Assembly: GCA_029210625.1 (NCBI GenBank) | Contig: JARGFU010000017.1 | Span: forward strand, 62,001-126,000 | DNA from: Deltaproteobacteria bacterium | GTDB taxonomy: Bacteria; Myxococcota; Myxococcia; SLRQ01 | DNA: 64,000 nucleotides | Reading direction: 5' to 3' | Shown: positions 21,925 to 30,868 of the stretch, piece by piece | Position numbering within the stretch: position 1 is the first letter of the stretch | Layout: every line of letters begins with the position of its first letter | Notes under the pieces: generated by a model | What the model saw: the letters and a program-made list of their open reading frames with translations, nothing else | Told to the model about the DNA's origin: nothing | Databases searched by the model: none | Position numbers and translations under genes: made by a program

Positions 21925-23349
21925 TTGGGGTCCTTCCACGTCCGTCCCGCGTCTCTGACGCGCTCGTCGATCTGTGTCTTCCTGGCCTCGGCCAGCCTCG
22001 CCTGCGGGCCGGCCGCCATGCCGCCCGTCGAGGAGCCGGTCCTCGCCCTCCCGCCCCTGATGTGGGGCGGGGTGGCCGCCGAGGATCTCGATCCCGACCC
22101 CGACGTGGTGGAGGTGTCGCTGCGGGCCGAGGAGCGCGCCCTCGATCTGGGCGGCGGCAAGGTCCTGCCGATGTTCACCTACAACGGGCTCTTCCCGGGC
22201 CCGCGGATCGAGGCGAAGGTCGGTGACGAGGTCGTCGTGCACTTCTTCAACGACCTCGACACGCCGCAGACGATCCACTGGCACGGCCTGCGGATCTCCG
22301 ACCAGATGGACGGCTCGCCCCGGATCCAGGATCCGGTCGAGCCCGGCGGCTCCTTCGAGTACCGCTTCGTCGTCCCGGACGCGGGCACCTACTGGTACCA
22401 CCCCCACGTCCGCTCGAACGTGGGCGTCGAGCGCGGCCTCCAGGGCGCGCTGGTGGTCCACGACCCGGCCGATCCCCACTTCGATCTCGAGCGGGTGCTC
22501 GTGCTCGACGACCTGCTCCTGGGGATGGACGGGAACCCTCCCCCCTTCCTGGCGACGCCGATGGAGCAGCGCCACGGCCGCCAGGGCAACGTGATGCTGA
22601 CCAACGGCCAGCTCGGGGGGACCGTCACGGCCGAGGCCGAGGTGGGCCAGGTGGAGCGCTGGCGCCTCGTGAACAGCGCCAACGCCCGGACCATGGTCCT
22701 CACCGTGGCGGGGGCCTCCTTCTGGGTGGTGGGCACCGACGGGGGGCGCCTCCCGGAGCCCTACCGCACCAGCCGGCTCACCCTCACCACGGGGCAGCGC
22801 TACGACCTGCAGGTCCACTACGAGACCCCGGGGCGAGTGACCCTCGTCAACCGCATGACGAACCACGACATGCAGGGCAACCACGTCATGGTGGTGGAGG
22901 AGAGCTTCTCGGTCTCCGTCCTCGACACCCGCCGGGCCCCCACCGAGATCGTCTGGGCGCCGATGGCGGACTTCCCCGAGCGCGCCATCGATCGCTGGGA
23001 GGAGATGATCTTCGACCTGGTGCAGGGGGACGACGGCCTGGAGTGGCGGATCAACGGGCGCACCAACCCCATGCGGCCGATCTACACCTTCGAGGAGGGG
23101 GACACCGTCTCCCTGCGTCTGCGTAACGAGTCGGATCACGAGCACCCCTTCCACCTCCACGGGCAGTTCTTCGAGATCGCCGGCACGGCCAACCCGGGCC
23201 TGAAGGACACCGTGCTCGTCACGGCCTGGAGCGATGTGTTGATCACGGCCTACCTCGACAACCCGGGCCGCTGGATGGCCCACTGCCACAACCTCGAGCA
23301 CGCCGAGCTGGGGATGATGGCCGAGATCCTCATCAACCCGGCCCCCTGA
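21925..23349 (+). CDS. Multicopper oxidase lipoprotein, copy 1
   Basis: 474 residues from a TTG start preceded by GGGGAGAAGAAGA. A lipoprotein signal (hydrophobic core then LASASLAC, Cys27) predicts membrane anchoring outside the cytoplasm. All four copper motifs are present: HWHG, WYHPHV, HPFHLHG and HCHNLEHAELGM, the last with the T1 copper Cys, His and an axial Met. Three cupredoxin domains fit the length. Substrate (metal ion, phenol or other) cannot be read; there is no Met-rich CueO-like insert. It is paralogous to and directly followed by the next gene. Confidence 0.93.
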   Translation: MGSFHVRPASLTRSSICVFLASASLACGPAAMPPVEEPVLALPPLMWGGVAAEDLDPDPDVVEVSLRAEERALDLGGGKVLPMFTYNGLFPGPRIEAKVGDEVVVHFFNDLDTPQTIHWHGLRISDQMDGSPRIQDPVEPGGSFEYRFVVPDAGTYWYHPHVRSNVGVERGLQGALVVHDPADPHFDLERVLVLDDLLLGMDGNPPPFLATPMEQRHGRQGNVMLTNGQLGGTVTAEAEVGQVERWRLVNSANARTMVLTVAGASFWVVGTDGGRLPEPYRTSRLTLTTGQRYDLQVHYETPGRVTLVNRMTNHDMQGNHVMVVEESFSVSVLDTRRAPTEIVWAPMADFPERAIDRWEEMIFDLVQGDDGLEWRINGRTNPMRPIYTFEEGDTVSLRLRNESDHEHPFHLHGQFFEIAGTANPGLKDTVLVTAWSDVLITAYLDNPGRWMAHCHNLEHAELGMMAEILINPAP

Positions 23350-23458
23350 CCCGGTCAGGTGTCTTGACGGTCGGTTGCGGGGCGCCCGCGGGGGTCCATC
23401 CTTGGGCCTGGCCGCCAGGGACCGCTCCGGTCCTCGGGCGCCCGTTGGGGAGAGTCAC

Positions 23459-24889
23459 ATGAAGCCGATGTCCGTCCGCCGTCCCTCCGTCCTGATTCCT
23501 TCGATCGCCGCCGCGCTGCTCCTCGGGAGCACCGCCTGCGGGGCCGAGCCCACCCCGGAGCTCCCCGGGGGCGACACGCCGGAGGTGCTCGCGCCGGTCG
23601 TCTGGGGCGGGGAGGTGGCAAAGGACGTCGATCCCGATCCGGACGTGGTCGAGGTCTGGCTGACCTCGGAGGAGAAGGAGATCGATCTGGGCGGCGGCAC
23701 GGTGCTGCCGATGCTCACCTACAACGGCCTCTACCCGGGCCCCCGCATCGAGGCGAAGGTGGGCGACGAGGTGGTGGTCCACTTCGTCAACGGCCTCCGG
23801 GAGCCCCAGACGATCCACTGGCACGGCCTGCGGATCTCCGACCAGATGGACGGCTCGCCGCGCATCCAGTCCCCGGTGGAGCCCGGCGACTCCTTCGAGT
23901 ACCGCTTCGTCGTCCCGGAGGCGGGCACCTTCTGGTACCACCCGCACGTGCGCTCGAACGTGGCGGTGGAGCGGGGCCTGCAGGGCGCGCTGGTCGTCCA
24001 CGACCCGGCCGATCCCCACTTCGATCTGGAGCGGGTGATCGTGGTCGACGACCTGCTGCTGAACGCCGATGGCACCCTGGCCAGCTTCTTCGGCAGCCAC
24101 ATGGAGGGGATGCACGGGCGCTGGGGCAACGTGCTGCTCACCAACGGCCGCTTCTCCGAGCTCGCCACCGGCGAGGCCGTGGTGGGCCAGGCCGAGCGCT
24201 GGCGGATCGTGAACACCGCGAACGCCCGCACCATGAGCCTCTCGGTCGAGGGCGCCGACTTCTGGGTGGTGGGCACCGACGGCGGTCGCCTGCCGACCCC
24301 CTACCGCAGCAGCCGGATCACGGTGGCGGTGGGGCAGCGCTACGACCTCGAGGTGCACTACGACGCCGTGGGCGAGGTGAGGCTCTACAACCATGTCCTC
24401 TCCTCCGATGCCCAGGGCAACACCGTCGAGCTGGCGCTGCCCAACCTGGTCGTCGACGTGGTGGACACCGCTCGCGCCCCGACCGAGATCGTCTGGGCGC
24501 CGAAGGACGCCCTCCCCGAGCGGAGCGTCGATCGCAGCGAGGAGCTGGTCTTCGACGCCGTGCAGGGCGCGAACGGCCTCGAGTGGCGGATCAACGGCGT
24601 CTCCCACGGGATGGAGCCCCTCTTCACCTTCGCCGAGGGCGAGACGGTCGAGCTGCTCCTGCGCAACACCCTGGGGCCCGAGCACCCCTTCCACCTCCAC
24701 GGTCAGTTCTTCGCGATCGCGGGGACCGCCCAGCCCGGCCTGAAGGACACGGTGCTGGTGCCGGGGATGAGCGACGTGCGCATCACGGCCTTCATGGACA
24801 ACCCGGGACGGTGGATGGCCCACTGCCACATCCTCGAGCACGCCGAGCTCGGGATGATGTCCGAGATCGTCGTCACGCCGGCCCCCTAG
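23459..24889 (+). CDS. Multicopper oxidase lipoprotein, copy 2
   Basis: About 476 residues. ATG 23459 is chosen because it follows GGGGAGAGTCAC and yields a proper lipoprotein signal (LLLGSTAC, Cys27); an upstream in-frame ATG lacks both. The copper sites are HWHG, WYHPHV, HPFHLHG and HCHILEHAELGM, complete for T1, T2 and T3 centres. Long blocks are identical to copy 1 (the stretch from TIHWHGLRISDQMDGSPRIQ and the block around WVVGTDGGRLP), so the pair arose by tandem duplication. The two differ most in the signal region and in the middle domain. Confidence 0.93.
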   Translation: MKPMSVRRPSVLIPSIAAALLLGSTACGAEPTPELPGGDTPEVLAPVVWGGEVAKDVDPDPDVVEVWLTSEEKEIDLGGGTVLPMLTYNGLYPGPRIEAKVGDEVVVHFVNGLREPQTIHWHGLRISDQMDGSPRIQSPVEPGDSFEYRFVVPEAGTFWYHPHVRSNVAVERGLQGALVVHDPADPHFDLERVIVVDDLLLNADGTLASFFGSHMEGMHGRWGNVLLTNGRFSELATGEAVVGQAERWRIVNTANARTMSLSVEGADFWVVGTDGGRLPTPYRSSRITVAVGQRYDLEVHYDAVGEVRLYNHVLSSDAQGNTVELALPNLVVDVVDTARAPTEIVWAPKDALPERSVDRSEELVFDAVQGANGLEWRINGVSHGMEPLFTFAEGETVELLLRNTLGPEHPFHLHGQFFAIAGTAQPGLKDTVLVPGMSDVRITAFMDNPGRWMAHCHILEHAELGMMSEIVVTPAP

Positions 24890-25024
24890 GGTCGCCGGCC
24901 CAGGTCGTCACGCGCGAGCGCCCCGGCCGCCTTGATGGCCCCGGGGCTCGATGCGAGTATGCGCGCCGCCAGGCGCGGGATCGGTCGATCCGGTGCCCCT
25001 TCGTGTACCCAGGAGACGATCGAG

Positions 25025-26872
25025 ATGACCGCTCTGAGAGACCCCTTCGCGACCGGAACCGTGGTCCACACCAACGCCTACCGTATCCGGCGCTTCCTGA
25101 ACTGGTTCCCCCTCGGGCTCACCTACGCCTTCCTCTACATGGGGCGGTACAACCTGACCGTCGCCAAGACCGAGCTCGGCAGCCTGATGACGAAGGAGGA
25201 CTTCGGCATCATCTTCGGTGTCGGAACGGTCACCTACGGCTTCGCCTTCCTCCTGAACGGTCCGCTCACCGACCGCTTCGGGGGCAAGAAGGCCATGCTG
25301 GTCGCGGCCCTCGGCTCGGGGCTCATGAACCTGATCATGGGCTACGCGATCTGGACCCTCGCGGGGAACCCGACGAGCGACATCAGCATCCGGGTGCTCT
25401 TCTCCTTCCTCTACGCGGCGAACATGTACTTCCAGTCCTTCGGGGCGGTCGCGATCGTGAAGGTGAACGCCTCCTGGTTCCACGTGAAGGAGCGAGGAGG
25501 CTTCTCGGGGATCTTCGGCACGATGATCTCCTCGGGCATCTTCCTCGCGTTCACGGTCAACGGCTGGATCGTGGATCTGACCCGGACCGCCGGCTCGGCG
25601 CAGACCTGGTGGGTCTTCTTCGCTCCCACGATCGCCCTCTGGGCGATGTTCGTGATCGAGCTCATCCTCCTCAAGGATCGCCCGGGTCAGGCGGGCCACG
25701 AGGACATCGAGACCGGTGACGACGACTCGGGCGACGACGGCAGCCCGATCAGCACCTGGGCGATCCTCAGGCGGATCTTCACCCACCCGATCATCCTCAC
25801 CGTGGCGTTCATCGAGTTCTGCACCGGCGTGCTGCGCAACGGCGTGATGCACTGGTTCCCGATCTACGCCAAGGAGGTCTGGGTCCTGCCGAGCGACCAC
25901 TGGCTGGTCTACGGAAACTGGGGTGAGCTCTACACGATCCTGCCCTTCTTCGGGGTGGCCGCGGTCCTCATGATCATCGGCGGCATCCGCAAGCAGAAGG
26001 GCAAGCCCTCGGCGGTCTTCTGGTCCCTGGGCGGCGTCCTCTTCCTGGTGCCCTTCATGCAGGGCGGCTGGGGTGGCCTCCTGATGGTCGCCGGCGTCAT
26101 CGGCGGCAACGTGGCGGGCTGGGTGAGCGACATCGTCTTCCAGAGCCGGCGGGCGCCGGTGGCGGCCCTGCTCTACGGCCTGCTCTGCGTGGCCTCCGTC
26201 GGCATGTTCTTCAGCCTCGGCTCCACGACCAACGAGGTGTCCTGGGCCAAGGAGGGGAAGACCCAGCTGCAGCCCGGCGACGTGATCACCGAGGTGAACG
26301 GCCAGGCGACCGAGGACTGGACCGACATCTCGAGAGAAGTGGCCTGCCTCCCGGCCGCCTGCGAGGGCGACGCGAAGTGGGACACCGAGAAGTGCTGGTG
26401 CTCGACCAAGCCCAAGCTCACCGCCGACGACCTGAAGGTCAGCACCGGCGTCATCCCGGTCGTGGTGCAGCGCGGGGGTGAGACCCTCACGTTGGAGCTG
26501 AAGGATCCCAAGCCCAAGATGCGGGCGGGTGACAAGCGCAAGCTCCCGGCGGGGCCGGTCCTGCCTCTCTCCCCCACCTGGCTCGGGGTGATCGTCTTCC
26601 TGATGAGCCTGGCGGTCATCGGCACCCACGGCCTGCTCTCGGGCACCGCCACCATGGACTTCGGCGGGAAGCGGGGCGCGGCCACCGCGGTCGGCGCCAT
26701 CGACGGCTTCGTCTACCTCGGGACCGGGCTGCAGTCCTTCTCCCTCGGGATCATCACCTCCTGGGATTGGAGCTACTGGCCCGTGTTCCTCTTCCCCTTC
26801 GGGCTGCTCGGTCTCTACCTGCTGACCCGGATCTGGAACGCCGTGCCCAAGGGCAAGAAGGCGGCCCACTGA
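25025..26872 (+). CDS. MFS transporter (GlpT/OPA-like) with a PDZ-like domain inserted between two late helices
   Basis: About 615 residues; ATG 25025 follows AGGAGACGATCGAG. Residues 1-390 and 515-615 read as a 12-helix MFS protein of the organophosphate:phosphate antiporter type (LNWFPLGLTYAFLYMGRYNLTVAK; later TMDFGGKRGAATAVGAIDG). Between about residues 398 and 513 there is a hydrophilic insert with a PDZ core (LQPGDVITEVNGQATEDWTD; VIPVVVQRGGETLTLELKD) and four cysteines in 17 residues (CLPAAC, CWC). By comparison with GlpT topology, the insert falls in the TM9-TM10 loop, on the periplasmic side. Substrate unknown; the PDZ role is inference. Confidence 0.85.
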   Translation: MTALRDPFATGTVVHTNAYRIRRFLNWFPLGLTYAFLYMGRYNLTVAKTELGSLMTKEDFGIIFGVGTVTYGFAFLLNGPLTDRFGGKKAMLVAALGSGLMNLIMGYAIWTLAGNPTSDISIRVLFSFLYAANMYFQSFGAVAIVKVNASWFHVKERGGFSGIFGTMISSGIFLAFTVNGWIVDLTRTAGSAQTWWVFFAPTIALWAMFVIELILLKDRPGQAGHEDIETGDDDSGDDGSPISTWAILRRIFTHPIILTVAFIEFCTGVLRNGVMHWFPIYAKEVWVLPSDHWLVYGNWGELYTILPFFGVAAVLMIIGGIRKQKGKPSAVFWSLGGVLFLVPFMQGGWGGLLMVAGVIGGNVAGWVSDIVFQSRRAPVAALLYGLLCVASVGMFFSLGSTTNEVSWAKEGKTQLQPGDVITEVNGQATEDWTDISREVACLPAACEGDAKWDTEKCWCSTKPKLTADDLKVSTGVIPVVVQRGGETLTLELKDPKPKMRAGDKRKLPAGPVLPLSPTWLGVIVFLMSLAVIGTHGLLSGTATMDFGGKRGAATAVGAIDGFVYLGTGLQSFSLGIITSWDWSYWPVFLFPFGLLGLYLLTRIWNAVPKGKKAAH

Positions 26873-26891: not shown

Positions 26892-27389
26892 TCAGGCGCG
26901 GACGTCCGACCCCGGCGTCAGCAGCGGCGCGGCGTCGAGCTCGGTGGCGTCCATCAGCCCCGAGATCCGGCGCAGCGCATCCAGCAGCTCGAGCCGCTCC
27001 TCGGGCTCGAGGGCGAGCAGGCGCTCGACGAAGCTCTCCTGCAGAGGGATGGGCAGGGTCTGGTAGCGCTCGGCGCCCGCGGCCGTCAGCGCCAGGCAGA
27101 CCTTGCGGCGGTCCTTCTCCTGCCGCGTGCGGGTGATCAGCTCGGAGCGGACCAGCCGGTCGAGGATCCGGGAGGTGGTCGCCGGGGAGAGGTGCACCTG
27201 GTTGCCCACCTGGGCCACCGTGATCTCCTCCCCGCGCTCCTCCAGCTCTCCGATGGCCTTGAGGCACATCAGTTGAGGCACCGTCAGCCCCACATCCCGG
27301 GAGAGGAGCTTGGAGTGCTCGGAGATCCGGCGGACGATCTGGCGGATGGCCCGGAGGACCTCGTGGGCGATGTCGGCCTCGCTCGGCAT
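26892..27389 (-). CDS. MarR-family transcriptional regulator
   Basis: 165 residues with the MarR winged helix: VTVAQVGNQVHLSPATTSRILDRLV (recognition-helix region, about 80-105) followed by the wing LITRTRQEKDRRKVCLALT, where the D-x-R-R motif is characteristic. It forms dimers that bind palindromic operators. Convergent with the PDZ-bearing transporter and divergent from ablB; a palindrome typical of MarR sites lies at 27491-27507 in the divergent interval, making it the likely local regulator. Ligand unknown. Confidence 0.92.
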   Translation of the reverse strand: MPSEADIAHEVLRAIRQIVRRISEHSKLLSRDVGLTVPQLMCLKAIGELEERGEEITVAQVGNQVHLSPATTSRILDRLVRSELITRTRQEKDRRKVCLALTAAGAERYQTLPIPLQESFVERLLALEPEERLELLDALRRISGLMDATELDAAPLLTPGSDVRA

Positions 27390-27490
27390 GGGGGCTCCGT
27401 GGGTCGAGGGGAGGGGTCAGCCATAGCACGGGCCCCCGGGCCGACCCAGCAGGTCGTGCCCCACAAAGACTTGAGGGACAAAGGTTGCTG

Positions 27491-27507
27491 TGACAATTAT
27501 ATTGGCA
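27491..27507. promoter_or_regulatory. MarR-type palindromic operator candidate
   Basis: TGACAATTATATTGGCA matches TG-n-CAAT-n3-ATTG-n-CA, symmetric apart from the three central bases and one position per arm. This resembles known MarR/OhrR boxes. It lies in an AT-rich pocket in otherwise GC-rich DNA, 101 bases upstream of the marR start on one side and 108 bases upstream of the ablB start on the other. A weak -35 (TTGAGG, 27471-27476) would place a -10 inside the palindrome. Confidence 0.6.
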
Positions 27508-27614
27508 ACATGTATTCCTGCAGTACGACCGTGGTGCCCGTCCATGCTCTCTCACCCGAGGATCCGCGTCCCCGGGGCTTCCCGGTGAAGATCCCCCTCC
27601 CGGAGGAGGCGCCG

Positions 27615-28409
27615 GTGACCGCCCGGGTGGACCTCTACTCGGACCGGCTGCGCTGCGATCACCCGCGCGCCCACAACGGGGAGGCCCTCGGGCTGGCGCT
27701 GGTGGCCGAGGCCGAGGAGCAGCGCCGGGGAAGGATCGTCGTCCTGGCCAGCGAGGAGGTCTCCGAGGGCCTCGAGGCGGTGGGCTACGAGACCGAAGCG
27801 GTGATGCCCGGCTTCTACCGCGGCGAGGACGACTGCGCGGTGCTGGCCTACGCCCTCGACGGTGAGCGCAGCGATGGCGGGCACCCCCTGGAGGTGGCGC
27901 GGGTCGACGCCCTGATCGAGCGCGGGCCTCGCCCCGGCCGGACCCACCTGCCGGTGGAGACCCACCGCGCGACCCCCGCGGACGCGCCGGAGATCGCCGA
28001 GCTGATCGCCGAGACCTTCGAGCAGTACCCGACACCGAGCGGCAACCCGGAGTACATCGCCGGGGCCATCGAGGAGGGCACCCCCTTCCGGGTGGTCCGC
28101 GATCAGGGCGAGGTCGTGGCCTGCGCCAGCGCCGATCTGATCCGCGAGGCGCGCACCGCCGAGCTCACCGACTGCGCCACCCTGCCGGAGGCGCGCGGGC
28201 GGGGCTACCTGCAGGCCATCCTCGAGGATCTGATGGGCGACCTGCGGGACCTGGACTACCCGACCGCCTTCACCCTGGCCCGGGCGCGCATCGCCGGGGT
28301 GAACCTGGCCTTCCAGCGCCTCGACTTCGAGTACCGCGGCCGGATGACCCGCTCGTGCCGGATCGGTGAGGGGCTCGAGGACATGAACGTGTGGAGCCGG
28401 AGCCTCTAG
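27615..28409 (+). CDS. ablB: Putative beta-lysine N-acetyltransferase
   Basis: About 264 residues from GTG 27615, chosen because GGAGGAGG lies 5 bases upstream and the length then matches AblB proteins (about 265). The N-terminal half has the AblB-like GFYRGEDDCAVLAYAL; the C-terminal GNAT half has DCATLPEARGRGYLQAILED (acetyl-CoA loop), TIARAR-like FTLARARIAG and ends EDMNVWSRSL, close to the ESMNVWYK-type ending of the family. Known AblB acetylates beta-lysine to the compatible solute N-epsilon-acetyl-beta-lysine. The partner lysine 2,3-aminomutase (AblA) is not in this window. Followed after 17 bases by the amidohydrolase gene, probably an operon. Confidence 0.8.
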   Translation: MTARVDLYSDRLRCDHPRAHNGEALGLALVAEAEEQRRGRIVVLASEEVSEGLEAVGYETEAVMPGFYRGEDDCAVLAYALDGERSDGGHPLEVARVDALIERGPRPGRTHLPVETHRATPADAPEIAELIAETFEQYPTPSGNPEYIAGAIEEGTPFRVVRDQGEVVACASADLIREARTAELTDCATLPEARGRGYLQAILEDLMGDLRDLDYPTAFTLARARIAGVNLAFQRLDFEYRGRMTRSCRIGEGLEDMNVWSRSL

Positions 28410-28426
28410 GGCGCTAGGTTCGAGCC

Positions 28427-29470
28427 GTGCCAGCCCCGATCCCCGTCTACTTCCACGACGCCCAGCTCGCGTTCAAGCCGCGCTACGAGTGGGCCTTCGG
28501 CGAGAAGATCGATCACCCGGAGACCACGGCGCGGGCCGAGTCGATCCTCGCAGCGGTGCGGGCCGCCCCGGAAGACTTCGAGCGGCGCGTGCCCCGCGAG
28601 GTTCCCCTCGGCGCCCTGCGGGCCCTGCACAACTACAGCCTGTTGACCCTCTACAACACGGCGGCCAAGGAGCTGGCCGAGGGCGAGACCTTCTCGCCGA
28701 TGGTCTTCCCCCGCCACCGCGACGGCACCGGCGATCCCACCAACCTCCACCAGGCCGGGGCCTTCTGCTTCGACTCGGGTACGCCCCTGGCGAGGAACAC
28801 CTGGGAGGCGGCGGCCTGGAGCGCCGCCTGCGCCCGGGACGCGGCCGCCGAGGTGAGCGGCGGCCGCCACCGCCTGACCTACGCCCTCTCGCGCCCTCCC
28901 GGACACCACGCCACCCGCGCCTCCTTCGGCGGCTACTGCTACTTCGCCAACGCGGCGGTGGCGGCCCGCCTGCTCAAGCGCAAGGGGAGGGTGGCGGTGG
29001 TGGACATCGACTTCCACCACGGCAACGGCACCCAGAACATCTTCTACCGCACGGCCGGCGTCTTCACGCTCTCCGTTCACGGTGATCCCCGCGAGGTCTT
29101 CCCCTACTTCGCCGGCTACGCCTCCGAGACCGGCGCCGGGCCGGGCCTGGGCTTCAACCTGAACATCCCCCTGCCGATGGGTCTCGACGGCGAGGCCTAC
29201 CTGCGGGTGATCGACGACCACGTCCTGCCAGCCGTGCAGCACTTCGCGCCGGACGCCCTGGTGCTCGCCGCGGGCTTCGACACCTACAAGAAGGATCCGG
29301 TGGGGCACTTCCAGCTCGAGCGCGGTGACTACCAGGCGCTGGGCGAGCGCTTCGGCCGCCTCGGCCTGCCCACGGTGGTGGTGCAGGAGGGCGGCTACCA
29401 CGCCGCGGATCTGGGCAAGCTCGCGACGACCTTCCTGCGCGGGGTGCAGGCGGGCCTGGCCGCGAGCTAG
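28427..29470 (+). CDS. Histone-deacetylase-superfamily amidohydrolase (acetylpolyamine amidohydrolase-like)
   Basis: 347 residues from GTG 28427, a length typical of bacterial acetylpolyamine amidohydrolases. HDAC-superfamily motifs are in order: RPPGHHATRASFGGYCYFAN (active-site His pair), VVDIDFHHGNGTQNIFY (zinc-binding Asp and His), SVHGDPREVFPYFAG, and a third zinc Asp in LAAGFDTYKKDP, then the catalytic Tyr region EGGYHA. It would hydrolyse N-acetyl groups from an acetylated amine. Position right behind ablB suggests an acetylated diamino compound as substrate; that is inference. Confidence 0.88.
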   Translation: MPAPIPVYFHDAQLAFKPRYEWAFGEKIDHPETTARAESILAAVRAAPEDFERRVPREVPLGALRALHNYSLLTLYNTAAKELAEGETFSPMVFPRHRDGTGDPTNLHQAGAFCFDSGTPLARNTWEAAAWSAACARDAAAEVSGGRHRLTYALSRPPGHHATRASFGGYCYFANAAVAARLLKRKGRVAVVDIDFHHGNGTQNIFYRTAGVFTLSVHGDPREVFPYFAGYASETGAGPGLGFNLNIPLPMGLDGEAYLRVIDDHVLPAVQHFAPDALVLAAGFDTYKKDPVGHFQLERGDYQALGERFGRLGLPTVVVQEGGYHAADLGKLATTFLRGVQAGLAAS

Positions 29471-29473
29471 CGA

Positions 29474-30868
29474 TCAGGCGCGCGCCTCGCGGGGCGAGAG
29501 CAGGGTGAGGACGATCAGCACCGCCGCCGAGGCGAGGATCGCCGGGATCACCGGATCGGGGCCGGGCGCCCAGGCCGGGACGAGGTTCAGGGTGACGGCC
29601 ACGCCGCCGCCGACCAGCATGCTCCAGAAGGCGGCCCGGGCGCCGGTCCGAGGCCAGAGCAGCCCGGCCAGGGTGGGGACGAAGAGGCCCGAGACCATGA
29701 AGGCGTAGGCGAGGAGCACCGCGTCGAGCACGCCGGGGAGGGCCAGCGCGACGCCGACCGAGAGGGCGCCGACCAGCAGGGTCAGGGCGCGCGAGAGCTT
29801 CAGGAGGCGCGCCTCGCTGGCGCGCTCACCGAGGTGAGGCTCGATGAGGTCGCCCACCAGGTTGCCCACCGAGGCCAGCAGGCAGCTGTCGGCCGTGGAC
29901 ATGATGGCCGAGAAGTACGCGGCCATCAGGATGCCCACGACGCCGACCGGCAGGACCTCGCGGATGAGCATCGGCAGGCCCAGCTCCGGCTCGACCTCGG
30001 GGAAGAGGATCCGGGCGAAGACGCCGAGGGTGACCCCGAGGAAGGCGATGAGCGGCCACTCGAAGAGCCCGGCCAGGTAGAAGGCGCGCCGGGCGGTCTT
30101 CACGTCCCGGCTGGCGTAGATGCGCTGGTAGAGGGTGTTGCCCACGAACCAGATGGGGATGATGGTCACCGCCCAGACCAGCAGGGTCTGCCCGTCGACG
30201 TTCGAGAGCGAGAGGTGGCCCTCGGGCAGCCCGGCGCGGAGCCCCTCGAGGCCGCCCACCGCTTCGAAGCCGAAAGGAAGCCCGAAGAAGAGCAGGCCGC
30301 CGAAGAGCACCGCCCACTGGAGGGTGTCGGTGTAGACCACCGCCTCGAGCCCGCCGAGGGTGGTGTAGAGGATGACGATCGCCGCCATCACCAGCACCGC
30401 GGTGGTCAGGTCGATCTGGAAGGCCACCGAGGAGAGCTTGGCGCCGGCGAGGATCTGGGCCCCGACGAAGGCGGCGTAGCCCACCGCCGAGACCACCGCC
30501 GCCAGGGTGCGGGTGCGGCCGTCGAAGCGGTGCTCGAGGTAGTCGGGGAAGGTGGTCCACCCCAGCTCCTCGCCCAGGGGCTTCACCCGGGGGATGATCA
30601 GCACCGCCGCGATCCAGGCGCCCACCAGGCCGGTGAAGAGGAGCCAGGAGCCCGAGAGGCCCATCGTGAAGCCCAGGCCTCCCAGCCCGATGGAGAAGCC
30701 CCCACCCACGTCGGTGGCGACGATGGAGAGGCCGAGGTGGCCGGCGCCCATCCGCCGGTTCCCCACGAAGTAGGCGTCGGTATCGGTCTGCCGCCGCAGG
30801 AAGTAGAGCCCCACGCCGACGAGGACGAGGCCGTAGCCGGCCACGATGGCCAGGTCCCAGCCGCTCAT
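29474..30868 (-). CDS. Sodium:solute symporter (SSS family)
   Basis: 464 residues with about 13 hydrophobic segments. The family pattern includes the early DTDAYFVGNRRMGAGHLGLS, ATDVGGGFSIGLGGLGFTMG (unwound first core helix with Na+ site), TLGGLEAVVYTDTLQWAVLFG and a PILMAAYFSAIMSTADSCLL-like stretch (VGILMAAYFSAIMSTADSC). It couples sodium influx to uptake of a small solute across the inner membrane; relatives take up proline, pantothenate, sugars or acetate. It is convergent with the amidohydrolase gene, only three bases apart, so any functional link to that locus is suggestive only. Confidence 0.92.
   Translation of the reverse strand: MSGWDLAIVAGYGLVLVGVGLYFLRRQTDTDAYFVGNRRMGAGHLGLSIVATDVGGGFSIGLGGLGFTMGLSGSWLLFTGLVGAWIAAVLIIPRVKPLGEELGWTTFPDYLEHRFDGRTRTLAAVVSAVGYAAFVGAQILAGAKLSSVAFQIDLTTAVLVMAAIVILYTTLGGLEAVVYTDTLQWAVLFGGLLFFGLPFGFEAVGGLEGLRAGLPEGHLSLSNVDGQTLLVWAVTIIPIWFVGNTLYQRIYASRDVKTARRAFYLAGLFEWPLIAFLGVTLGVFARILFPEVEPELGLPMLIREVLPVGVVGILMAAYFSAIMSTADSCLLASVGNLVGDLIEPHLGERASEARLLKLSRALTLLVGALSVGVALALPGVLDAVLLAYAFMVSGLFVPTLAGLLWPRTGARAAFWSMLVGGGVAVTLNLVPAWAPGPDPVIPAILASAAVLIVLTLLSPREARA

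What the first reader, a model, noticed from the sequence alone, without database searches (positions are those of the whole stretch)
26892..29470. AblB next to an acetylpolyamine-type deacetylase under an apparent MarR operator
Seen: an AblB-like acetyltransferase and an HDAC-fold amidohydrolase 17 bases apart, with a MarR gene divergent and a TGnCAAT-n3-ATTGnCA palindrome between. Known: AblB makes N-epsilon-acetyl-beta-lysine, an osmolyte; the aminomutase AblA normally accompanies it. Here AblA is absent and a deacetylase takes its place. Inference: a make-and-unmake cycle for an acetylated diamine, or AblB re-purposed for polyamine acetylation. The convergent sodium symporter could import the substrate.
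Basis: partly seen in the sequence, partly recalled or inferred. Interest (0 to 1): 0.6.

Follow-up and report, generated by a model that had tools for sequence, protein, structure and literature searches.

The report
Acetylated-lysine osmolyte operon with built-in deacetylase
A bacterium appears to carry a salt-stress gene cluster in which the enzyme that makes a protective acetylated lysine derivative sits beside an enzyme that could take it apart again; this would matter because we found no described enzyme that removes that protectant.

Summary
The locus is real: an AblB-like acetyltransferase (27510-28409) and a catalytically intact HDAC/acetylpolyamine-amidohydrolase-fold protein (28427-29470), 17 bases apart, with a divergent MarR gene and a convergent sodium symporter. 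Two corrections. AblA is not absent: an unlinked KamA/AblA homologue with both lysine-side-chain aspartates lies on another contig. The palindrome is unique in the genome, but an inverted repeat of that quality is expected by chance in the gap; its support is that it overlaps the only sigma-70-like -10.

The pairing is not random. AblB is rare in the phylum (4 of 195 genomes); two have HDAC beside it, in opposite order, and those two HDACs form their own branch. The MarR belongs to the EctR/CosR family of osmolyte repressors, and no EctA passes its cut-off in this genome. The symporter (4 of 195) abuts ablB in a family-mate.

Best reading (0.5): an osmolyte module in which AblB makes N-epsilon-acetyl-beta-lysine or a close analogue under an EctR-type repressor and the deacetylase removes it. 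Polyamine acetylation is less likely: the polyamine determinants (Glu106, PIS motif) are missing. A lysine-catabolic, acetyl-protected route, as suggested by the Bacillus operon, is the main rival. Substrates are untested.

The parts
26892..27389 (-). MarR-family regulator of the EctR/CosR (osmolyte repressor) subfamily, divergent from ablB
   Evidence: PF01047; best BLAST to Aeromonas/Vibrio MarRs, 43-47%; 18-row EctR/CosR-containing group at 99/98 against 14 other phylum MarRs, one long-branched row inside
27475..27503 (+). sigma-70-like promoter (GGGACA-17-TATATT), 9 of 12
   Evidence: consensus match only
27491..27507 (.). candidate operator TGACAATTATATTGGCA, overlapping the -10 and ending 2 bases before the likely ATG
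   Evidence: unique in genome; repeat itself not beyond chance; not found upstream of the homologous MarR or ect genes tested
27510..28409 (+). AblB-like acetyltransferase (start ATG 27510 inferred; frame is open from 27192)
   Evidence: TIGR03827 189.7 bits, cut-off 205.1; 55% identical to the G182 protein, 67% over the C-terminal part in L011; start inferred from a similar N-terminus in L011
28427..29470 (+). HDAC/acetylpolyamine-amidohydrolase-fold deacetylase, 17 bases after ablB
   Evidence: PF00850; PDB relatives; catalytic residues
29474..30868 (-). SSF sodium:solute symporter, convergent with the deacetylase
   Evidence: PF00474, TIGR00813 over cut-off; orthologue next to ablB in G001, 61%

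Best explanation
An osmolyte module. AblB acetylates the terminal amine of beta-lysine (made by the unlinked KamA homologue) or of a close diamino-acid analogue, giving a neutral zwitterionic compatible solute; an EctR/CosR-type MarR represses the ablB-deacetylase operon at low salinity; the HDAC-fold enzyme hydrolyses the acetyl amide to return the solute to the amino-acid pool when it is no longer needed; the SSF symporter brings in the solute or its amino-acid precursor. Shown by sequence: the genes, their order, intact catalytic residues, the family of the MarR, recurrence of the pairs. Inferred: every substrate, the repression, and the direction of flux. Because both enzymes seem to share one operon, something must stop a futile cycle; a plausible switch, untested, is inhibition of the HDAC-fold enzyme by high K+, as measured for HDAC8 and HDAC3.
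For: AblB is rare (4 of 195 phylum genomes, E<=1e-20), yet HDAC adjoins it in 2 of those 4: ablB-HDAC in the window, HDAC-ablB overlapping by 4 bases in G159, whose AblB passes the curated cut-off (260.9 bits). These two HDACs are each other's best match (329 bits in the phylum search, next 255) and branch together (91/84, long-branch warning). The MarR subfamily occurs in 8 of 195 genomes (186 bits or more, then a drop to 88); of 8 plasmid relatives of the L010 MarR that I opened (of 146 records matched), 6 lie by ectA/ectB genes and 1 is divergent from a BCCT transporter. It is next to or near ablB in 3 loci: window, L010, G182. No EctA over cut-off in any of 12 genomes incl. this one. SSF in 4 of 195; it ends 3 bases before ablB in G001 and lies about 3 kb from the EctR-like MarR in G040. 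KamA present with both aspartates. EctR/CosR repress osmolyte genes at low salinity (PMC7876524, PMC5924519, passages read). K+ dependence of HDAC8/HDAC3: PMC4016748 and PMC6287826 passages.
Against: Window AblB misses the TIGR03827 cut-off. The AblA homologue is unlinked and under its AblA cut-off. No sign of a matching operator near kamA or the related MarR and ect genes. The HDAC gatekeeper is neutral (DPVG), not the lysine that HDAC6 CD1 uses for free-carboxylate acetyl-lysine, so nothing in sequence shows that it takes an amino-acid substrate. Turnover of acetyl-beta-lysine is reported as little if any in methanogens (PMC1224877 passage). Two of the four phylum ablB genomes have an Amidohydro_3 protein near ablB instead of the HDAC, and G001 has no EctR-type MarR match. 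The window MarR's exact place in the tree is unsure (end branch 1.32).
Confidence: 0.5

Rival explanations
1. Lysine catabolism with acetyl as a protecting group. AblB caps the terminal amine of beta-lysine so that the beta-amino group can be removed and the chain shortened; the deacetylase uncaps a later intermediate such as 4-acetamidobutyrate.
For: Bacillaceae ablB sits in an operon aminotransferase - CoA transferase A/B - ArgE/DapE (M20) deacylase - ablB, with ablA following in the two longer records; L011 has ablB near an AstE_AspA/DoeB-like deacylase, a CoA-transferase A and a class III aminotransferase; a Rhizobium HDAC lies behind an aminotransferase, a BKACE fragment and a GNAT.
Against: No aminotransferase, CoA transferase or BKACE lies at the window locus, at kamA or around the genome's BKACE gene, as far as the ORFs were read by eye; BKACE is common in the phylum (164 of 195), so its presence says nothing; the EctR-type regulator fits osmolyte control better.
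Confidence: 0.22
2. Polyamine acetylation cycle: AblB is re-purposed to acetylate putrescine, cadaverine or spermidine and the HDAC-fold enzyme is an ordinary acetylpolyamine amidohydrolase.
For: All top solved relatives are named acetylpolyamine amidohydrolases; Pseudomonas ApaH enzymes act on acetylputrescine and acetylcadaverine, PsApaH with His in place of Glu106 (PMC11532494, PMC4784309 passages).
Against: The PIS motif, seen in 20 of 31 proteins read and described for bacterial polyamine deacetylases, is DPVG here and DPIG in the other ablB-linked HDAC; Glu106 aligns with His or Leu; the L1-loop Phe27 aligns with Pro (positions counted by hand); AblB keeps its full-length family match including the N-terminal part.
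Confidence: 0.13
3. No shared pathway: the HDAC is a protein-lysine or xenobiotic deacetylase that merely lies next to ablB.
For: HDAC-fold genes are common (117 of 195 phylum genomes at E<=1e-30) and bacterial members have protein and small-molecule substrates (PMC11532494 passages).
Against: Adjacency recurs in G159 with gene order reversed and a 4-base overlap, and the two proteins are closest to each other.
Confidence: 0.12

Closest known systems
ablA-ablB N-epsilon-acetyl-beta-lysine operon of methanogens (salt-induced)
   Same: AblB-type acetyltransferase with full-length TIGR03827 match; a KamA/AblA homologue in the genome
   Different: ablA homologue unlinked; operon partner is a deacetylase; EctR/CosR-type regulator and SSF symporter attached; AblB just under the curated cut-off
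Bacillaceae operon aminotransferase - CoA transferase - ArgE/DapE deacylase - ablB - ablA
   Same: ablB adjoins a deacylase
   Different: deacylase is M20, not HDAC fold; catabolic genes and ablA are linked there and not here
ectABC operons with divergent ectR (and Vibrio CosR)
   Same: MarR of the same subfamily divergent from a gene for an acetyltransferase that acts on a diamino acid
   Different: no ectABC; EctA absent from the genome above cut-off; operator sequence not shared
Bacterial acetylpolyamine amidohydrolases (ApaH, 'cluster 4'; Mycoplana ramosa, Pseudomonas)
   Same: fold, catalytic residues, about 220-230 bits
   Different: no PIS motif, no Glu106; linked to ablB

Membership tests
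AblB (TIGR03827 equivalog) | score over curated cut-off 205.1 | tested here: not met
   189.7 bits for the window protein; the G159 partner of the other HDAC scores 260.9
AblB (TIGR03827 equivalog) | full-length alignment including N-terminal domain | tested here: met
   profile positions 4-266 of 266
N-epsilon-acetyl-beta-lysine osmolyte system | lysine 2,3-aminomutase (AblA) in the genome | tested here: inconclusive
   KamA family TIGR00238 over cut-off, AblA best hit 405 bits but under 525.4; Asp293/Asp330 equivalents kept
N-epsilon-acetyl-beta-lysine osmolyte system | ablA and ablB in one operon | tested here: not met
   different contigs, C21 and C17
N-epsilon-acetyl-beta-lysine osmolyte system | salt-induced accumulation of the solute | not testable with these tools
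   needs culture and NMR or LC-MS
EctR/CosR regulators | falls with known-context EctR/CosR proteins, apart from other MarRs | tested here: met
   99/98 branch; best matches are Vibrio/Aeromonas; exact place inside unsure
EctR/CosR regulators | A/T-rich pseudo-palindromic operator at the target promoter (two 8-base halves, 2 apart, in M. alcaliphilum) | tested here: inconclusive
   7-3-7 repeat over the -10 but not beyond chance and not shared; description from PMC5924519 passage
Bacterial polyamine deacetylase (ApaH) | zinc ligands, tandem His, GGY tyrosine | tested here: met
   H160, H161, D195, H197, D285, Y324
Bacterial polyamine deacetylase (ApaH) | PIS gatekeeper motif | tested here: not met
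   DPVG instead of DPIS; motif described in PMC11532494 passage
Bacterial polyamine deacetylase (ApaH) | L2-loop Glu106 (Mycoplana) or His106 (PsApaH) | tested here: inconclusive
   no Glu; aligns with His108 by phmmer, Leu107 or gap by MAFFT, so the His form is not excluded
Bacterial polyamine deacetylase (ApaH) | activity on acetylpolyamines | not testable with these tools
   enzyme assay needed

The most novel reading that the evidence does not exclude
A self-limiting osmolyte switch: AblB and an HDAC-fold deacetylase are made from one EctR-repressed operon, and cytoplasmic K+ sets the balance. High K+ after osmotic upshift inhibits the deacetylase so acetyl-beta-lysine builds up; when K+ falls the deacetylase drains the pool. 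More widely, ablB has recruited deacylases of four unrelated folds (HDAC, Amidohydro_3, AstE_AspA, M20), and GNAT-HDAC fusion proteins (G055, G163) may be one-chain versions of such a pair.
Probability: 0.15. Interest if true: 0.75.

Novelty: new variant of a known kind. Interest (0 to 1): 0.5.

Why it matters
[quoted passage not shown] in the papers I could search, no enzyme that removes it is named, and methanogens are reported to turn it over little if at all (PMC1224877, passage). A deacetylase in the synthesis operon gives a direct, cheap test of whether and how the solute is recycled. It would also give a physiological substrate to a bacterial HDAC-fold enzyme placed only by resemblance to polyamine deacetylases, and extend the EctR/CosR regulon beyond ectoine and betaine.

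Tried and rejected
AblA missing from the genome: rejected. Palindrome as proof of an operator: rejected as proof and not found with few mismatches upstream of homologous MarR, ect, kamA or G159 genes (the best was 3 mismatches at Alloyangia). BKACE as a sign of catabolism: present in G000, G001, G159, G182 (4 of 6 genomes asked), but in 164 of 195 phylum genomes, so dropped. EctA as the MarR's target: no match over cut-off in 12 genomes; two weak GNAT matches in G000 (28.1 and 22.7 bits) ignored. Literature for yodP/yodQ/kamA gave only unrelated papers, and a later search for an acetyl-protected lysine pathway gave one EF-P paper. Structure prediction was not run: by its description the genome-search loci are not among the sequences it accepts, and it returns no coordinates. 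Co-occurrence by hypergeometric test (SSF with MarR 3 of 4, p 2e-4; ablB with SSF 2 of 4, p 0.002; ablB with MarR 2 of 4, p 0.009) ignores relatedness and is only a guide. In the MarR tree two rows labelled 'ectoine' (Vib190c, Aerom) had no ect genes nearby, so that label is looser than it reads. Of 31 HDAC rows, two gave no match to the gatekeeper pattern and stay in the count; L061 was dropped earlier because no ORF with the PGHH motif was found.
Full report
What is there. The window lies in a 6.11-Mb genome in 64 contigs. Reading the plus strand: a MarR gene (26892-27389, minus), a 120-base gap, an AblB-like ORF ending at 28409, 17 bases, an HDAC-fold ORF 28427-29470, 3 bases, and a convergent SSF symporter 29474-30868. 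The AblB frame is open from 27192; the most likely start is ATG 27510, because the L011 relative shares the following residues. The AblB match is full length but 15 bits under the curated cut-off. The HDAC protein keeps H160/H161, D195, H197, D285 and Y324 and its best solved relatives are acetylpolyamine amidohydrolases.

The palindrome. It overlaps the -10 of the only promoter-like site in the region, and the 51 bases around it are 41% G+C in a 71% G+C window. As an inverted repeat it is ordinary: 425 of 500 shuffles of the stretch have one as good somewhere. It has no counterpart upstream of the homologous MarR, ect or kamA genes that I checked. It is a candidate operator and no more.

AblA. 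The genome has a KamA-family protein on contig 21 (405 bits to AblA against a cut-off of 525.4, 380 to glutamate and 355 to arginine 2,3-aminomutase), next to a Rid-family gene. Aligned with 2a5h it keeps the residues at Asp293 and Asp330, which I recall as the pair that holds the lysine side-chain amine. Its closest relative among those compared is a G159 protein, 57%. G159 also has a second copy over the AblA cut-off (555 bits, one TAG inside the match). So the precursor pathway is probably present, unlinked.

Recurrence of ablB with the deacetylase. In 195 phylum genomes, 4 have AblB at E<=1e-20: G000, G001, G159, G182. G159, another family of the same class, has HDAC then AblB, overlapping by 4 bases, order reversed; its AblB passes the cut-off. 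HDAC-fold proteins are common (117 of 195), but the window and G159 proteins are each other's best match (329 bits, next 255) and branch together at 91/84, with a long-branch warning. The window and G159 AblBs are only 33% identical, so the pairing is either old or arisen twice.

Other ablB neighbourhoods. I opened 11 ablB loci in all. Eight have a hydrolase of a deacylase-type family within about 2.5 kb: HDAC in G000 and G159; Amidohydro_3 in G001 (106 bases downstream) and G182 (2.4 kb away, one gene between, other strand; the two are 61% identical); an AstE_AspA protein nearest DoeB in L011 (one gene between); ArgE/DapE M20 deacylases in L066, L068 and L142, three Bacillaceae that count as one lineage (families run on L066 and L068 only; L142 by its annotation 'peptidase' and place). 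Three do not: Peptoclostridium L067 (ablA-ablB alone), Ilyobacter L143 (ablA with ablB in one 716-aa CDS, aminotransferases on both sides), and L010, whose contig begins inside ablB. Amidohydro_3 is a broad family and its role here is a guess. I measured no base rate.

The regulator. A tblastn search of plasmids with the L010 MarR matched 146 records; I opened 8. Five lie divergent from ectABC (Alloyangia, Leisingera, Qingshengfaniella, Sphingobium, Aminobacter), one lies beside proVWX and ectA/ectB (Vibrio nigripulchritudo), one is divergent from a BCCT transporter (Aeromonas), and one, Vibrio THAF190c, has neither. The window MarR's best matches are the Aeromonas and Vibrio proteins, 43-47%, above every other phylum MarR compared. 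In a tree the ablB-linked, EctR/CosR and related phylum MarRs stand apart from 14 other MarRs at 99/98, with one long-branched outsider inside, and the window's exact place is unsure. Only 8 of 195 phylum genomes carry this subfamily at 186 bits or more, after which scores fall to 88. No EctA passes its cut-off in 12 genomes, this one included. EctR and CosR repress osmolyte genes at low salinity (passages of PMC7876524 and PMC5924519).

The symporter. The SSF protein has relatives at E<=1e-60 in only 4 of 195 genomes: G000; G001, where it ends 3 bases before ablB on the same strand (ablB itself is split between two contig ends); and G040 and G042, where it sits with an Ala_racemase_N protein and another GNAT. 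In G040 the EctR-like MarR lies about 3 kb away. An acetyltransferase gene is therefore within a few kilobases of it in 4 of 4.

Substrate clues. Bacterial polyamine deacetylases carry a PIS motif at the gatekeeper, and Mycoplana ApaH uses Glu106; HDAC10 has Glu, and HDAC6 CD1 a Lys that selects acetyl-lysine with a free carboxylate (passages of PMC11532494 and PMC5454378). Of 31 HDAC proteins read, 20 have DPIS; the window has DPVG, G159 DPIG, the two GNAT-HDAC fusions DPTG. Glu106 falls on His108 in the phmmer alignment, and on Leu or a gap by MAFFT. So the polyamine signature is lost in part, but nothing positive points to an amino-acid substrate.

How it most likely works. Shown: gene content, order, recurrence, intact catalytic residues, regulator family. 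Inferred: KamA supplies beta-lysine, AblB acetylates it, the MarR protein shuts the operon at low salt, the deacetylase clears the solute. A shared operon implies a brake on one enzyme; high K+ lowers the activity of HDAC3 and, less certainly, HDAC8 (PMC6287826 and PMC4016748 passages; the latter doubts a specific inhibitory site), which would suit an osmotic switch. That step is speculation.

Rivals and verdict. The Bacillaceae operon and L011 suggest that ablB can also serve lysine breakdown with acetyl as a protecting group. At the window no such genes are linked, and BKACE, found in this genome, is in 164 of 195 phylum genomes and so tells nothing. I hold the osmolyte reading at 0.5, catabolism at 0.22, polyamines at 0.13, no link at 0.12. 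I found no paper that pairs ablB or acetyl-beta-lysine with a deacetylase that removes it: searches returned none, and one paper that mentions a different deacetylase. The library holds open-licence papers only.

Noticed in passing
L050:553-2349 (G055) and L043:1426-3840 minus (G163): Single ORFs joining an N-terminal GNAT domain to an HDAC-fold domain (Pfam run on G055 only; G163 by its matching sequence): a one-chain acetyltransferase-deacetylase.
   Followed up: partly
L129:583-3645 (G042) and L107:3787-6912 minus (G040): Cluster of a GNAT, an Ala_racemase_N protein and the window-type SSF symporter; the GNATs are 60% identical.
   Followed up: partly
L116:2729-6029 (Rhizobium sp. CB3171 plasmid): Class III aminotransferase, BKACE fragment, GNAT and HDAC in a row: another acetyl-protecting-group candidate.
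   Followed up: no
L025:2210-12703 (G182): ablB amid an EctR-like MarR, a ProV-type ABC transporter, a fused methyltransferase/EgtD-like protein, an amino-acid ABC transporter and an Amidohydro_3 protein.
   Followed up: partly
L143:5483-7633 (Ilyobacter polytropus plasmid): The annotated ablA CDS is 716 aa and its C-terminal part matches AblB: a natural ablA-ablB fusion.
   Followed up: no
window 21925-24889: Two tandem multicopper oxidase genes.
   Followed up: no
window 24932-26872: MFS transporter (GlpT/UhpC-like) with a weak PDZ-like match inside the chain, convergent with the MarR gene.
   Followed up: no
L011:7306-8306: ablB read in two overlapping frames, so broken there or a sequencing error.
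   Followed up: no
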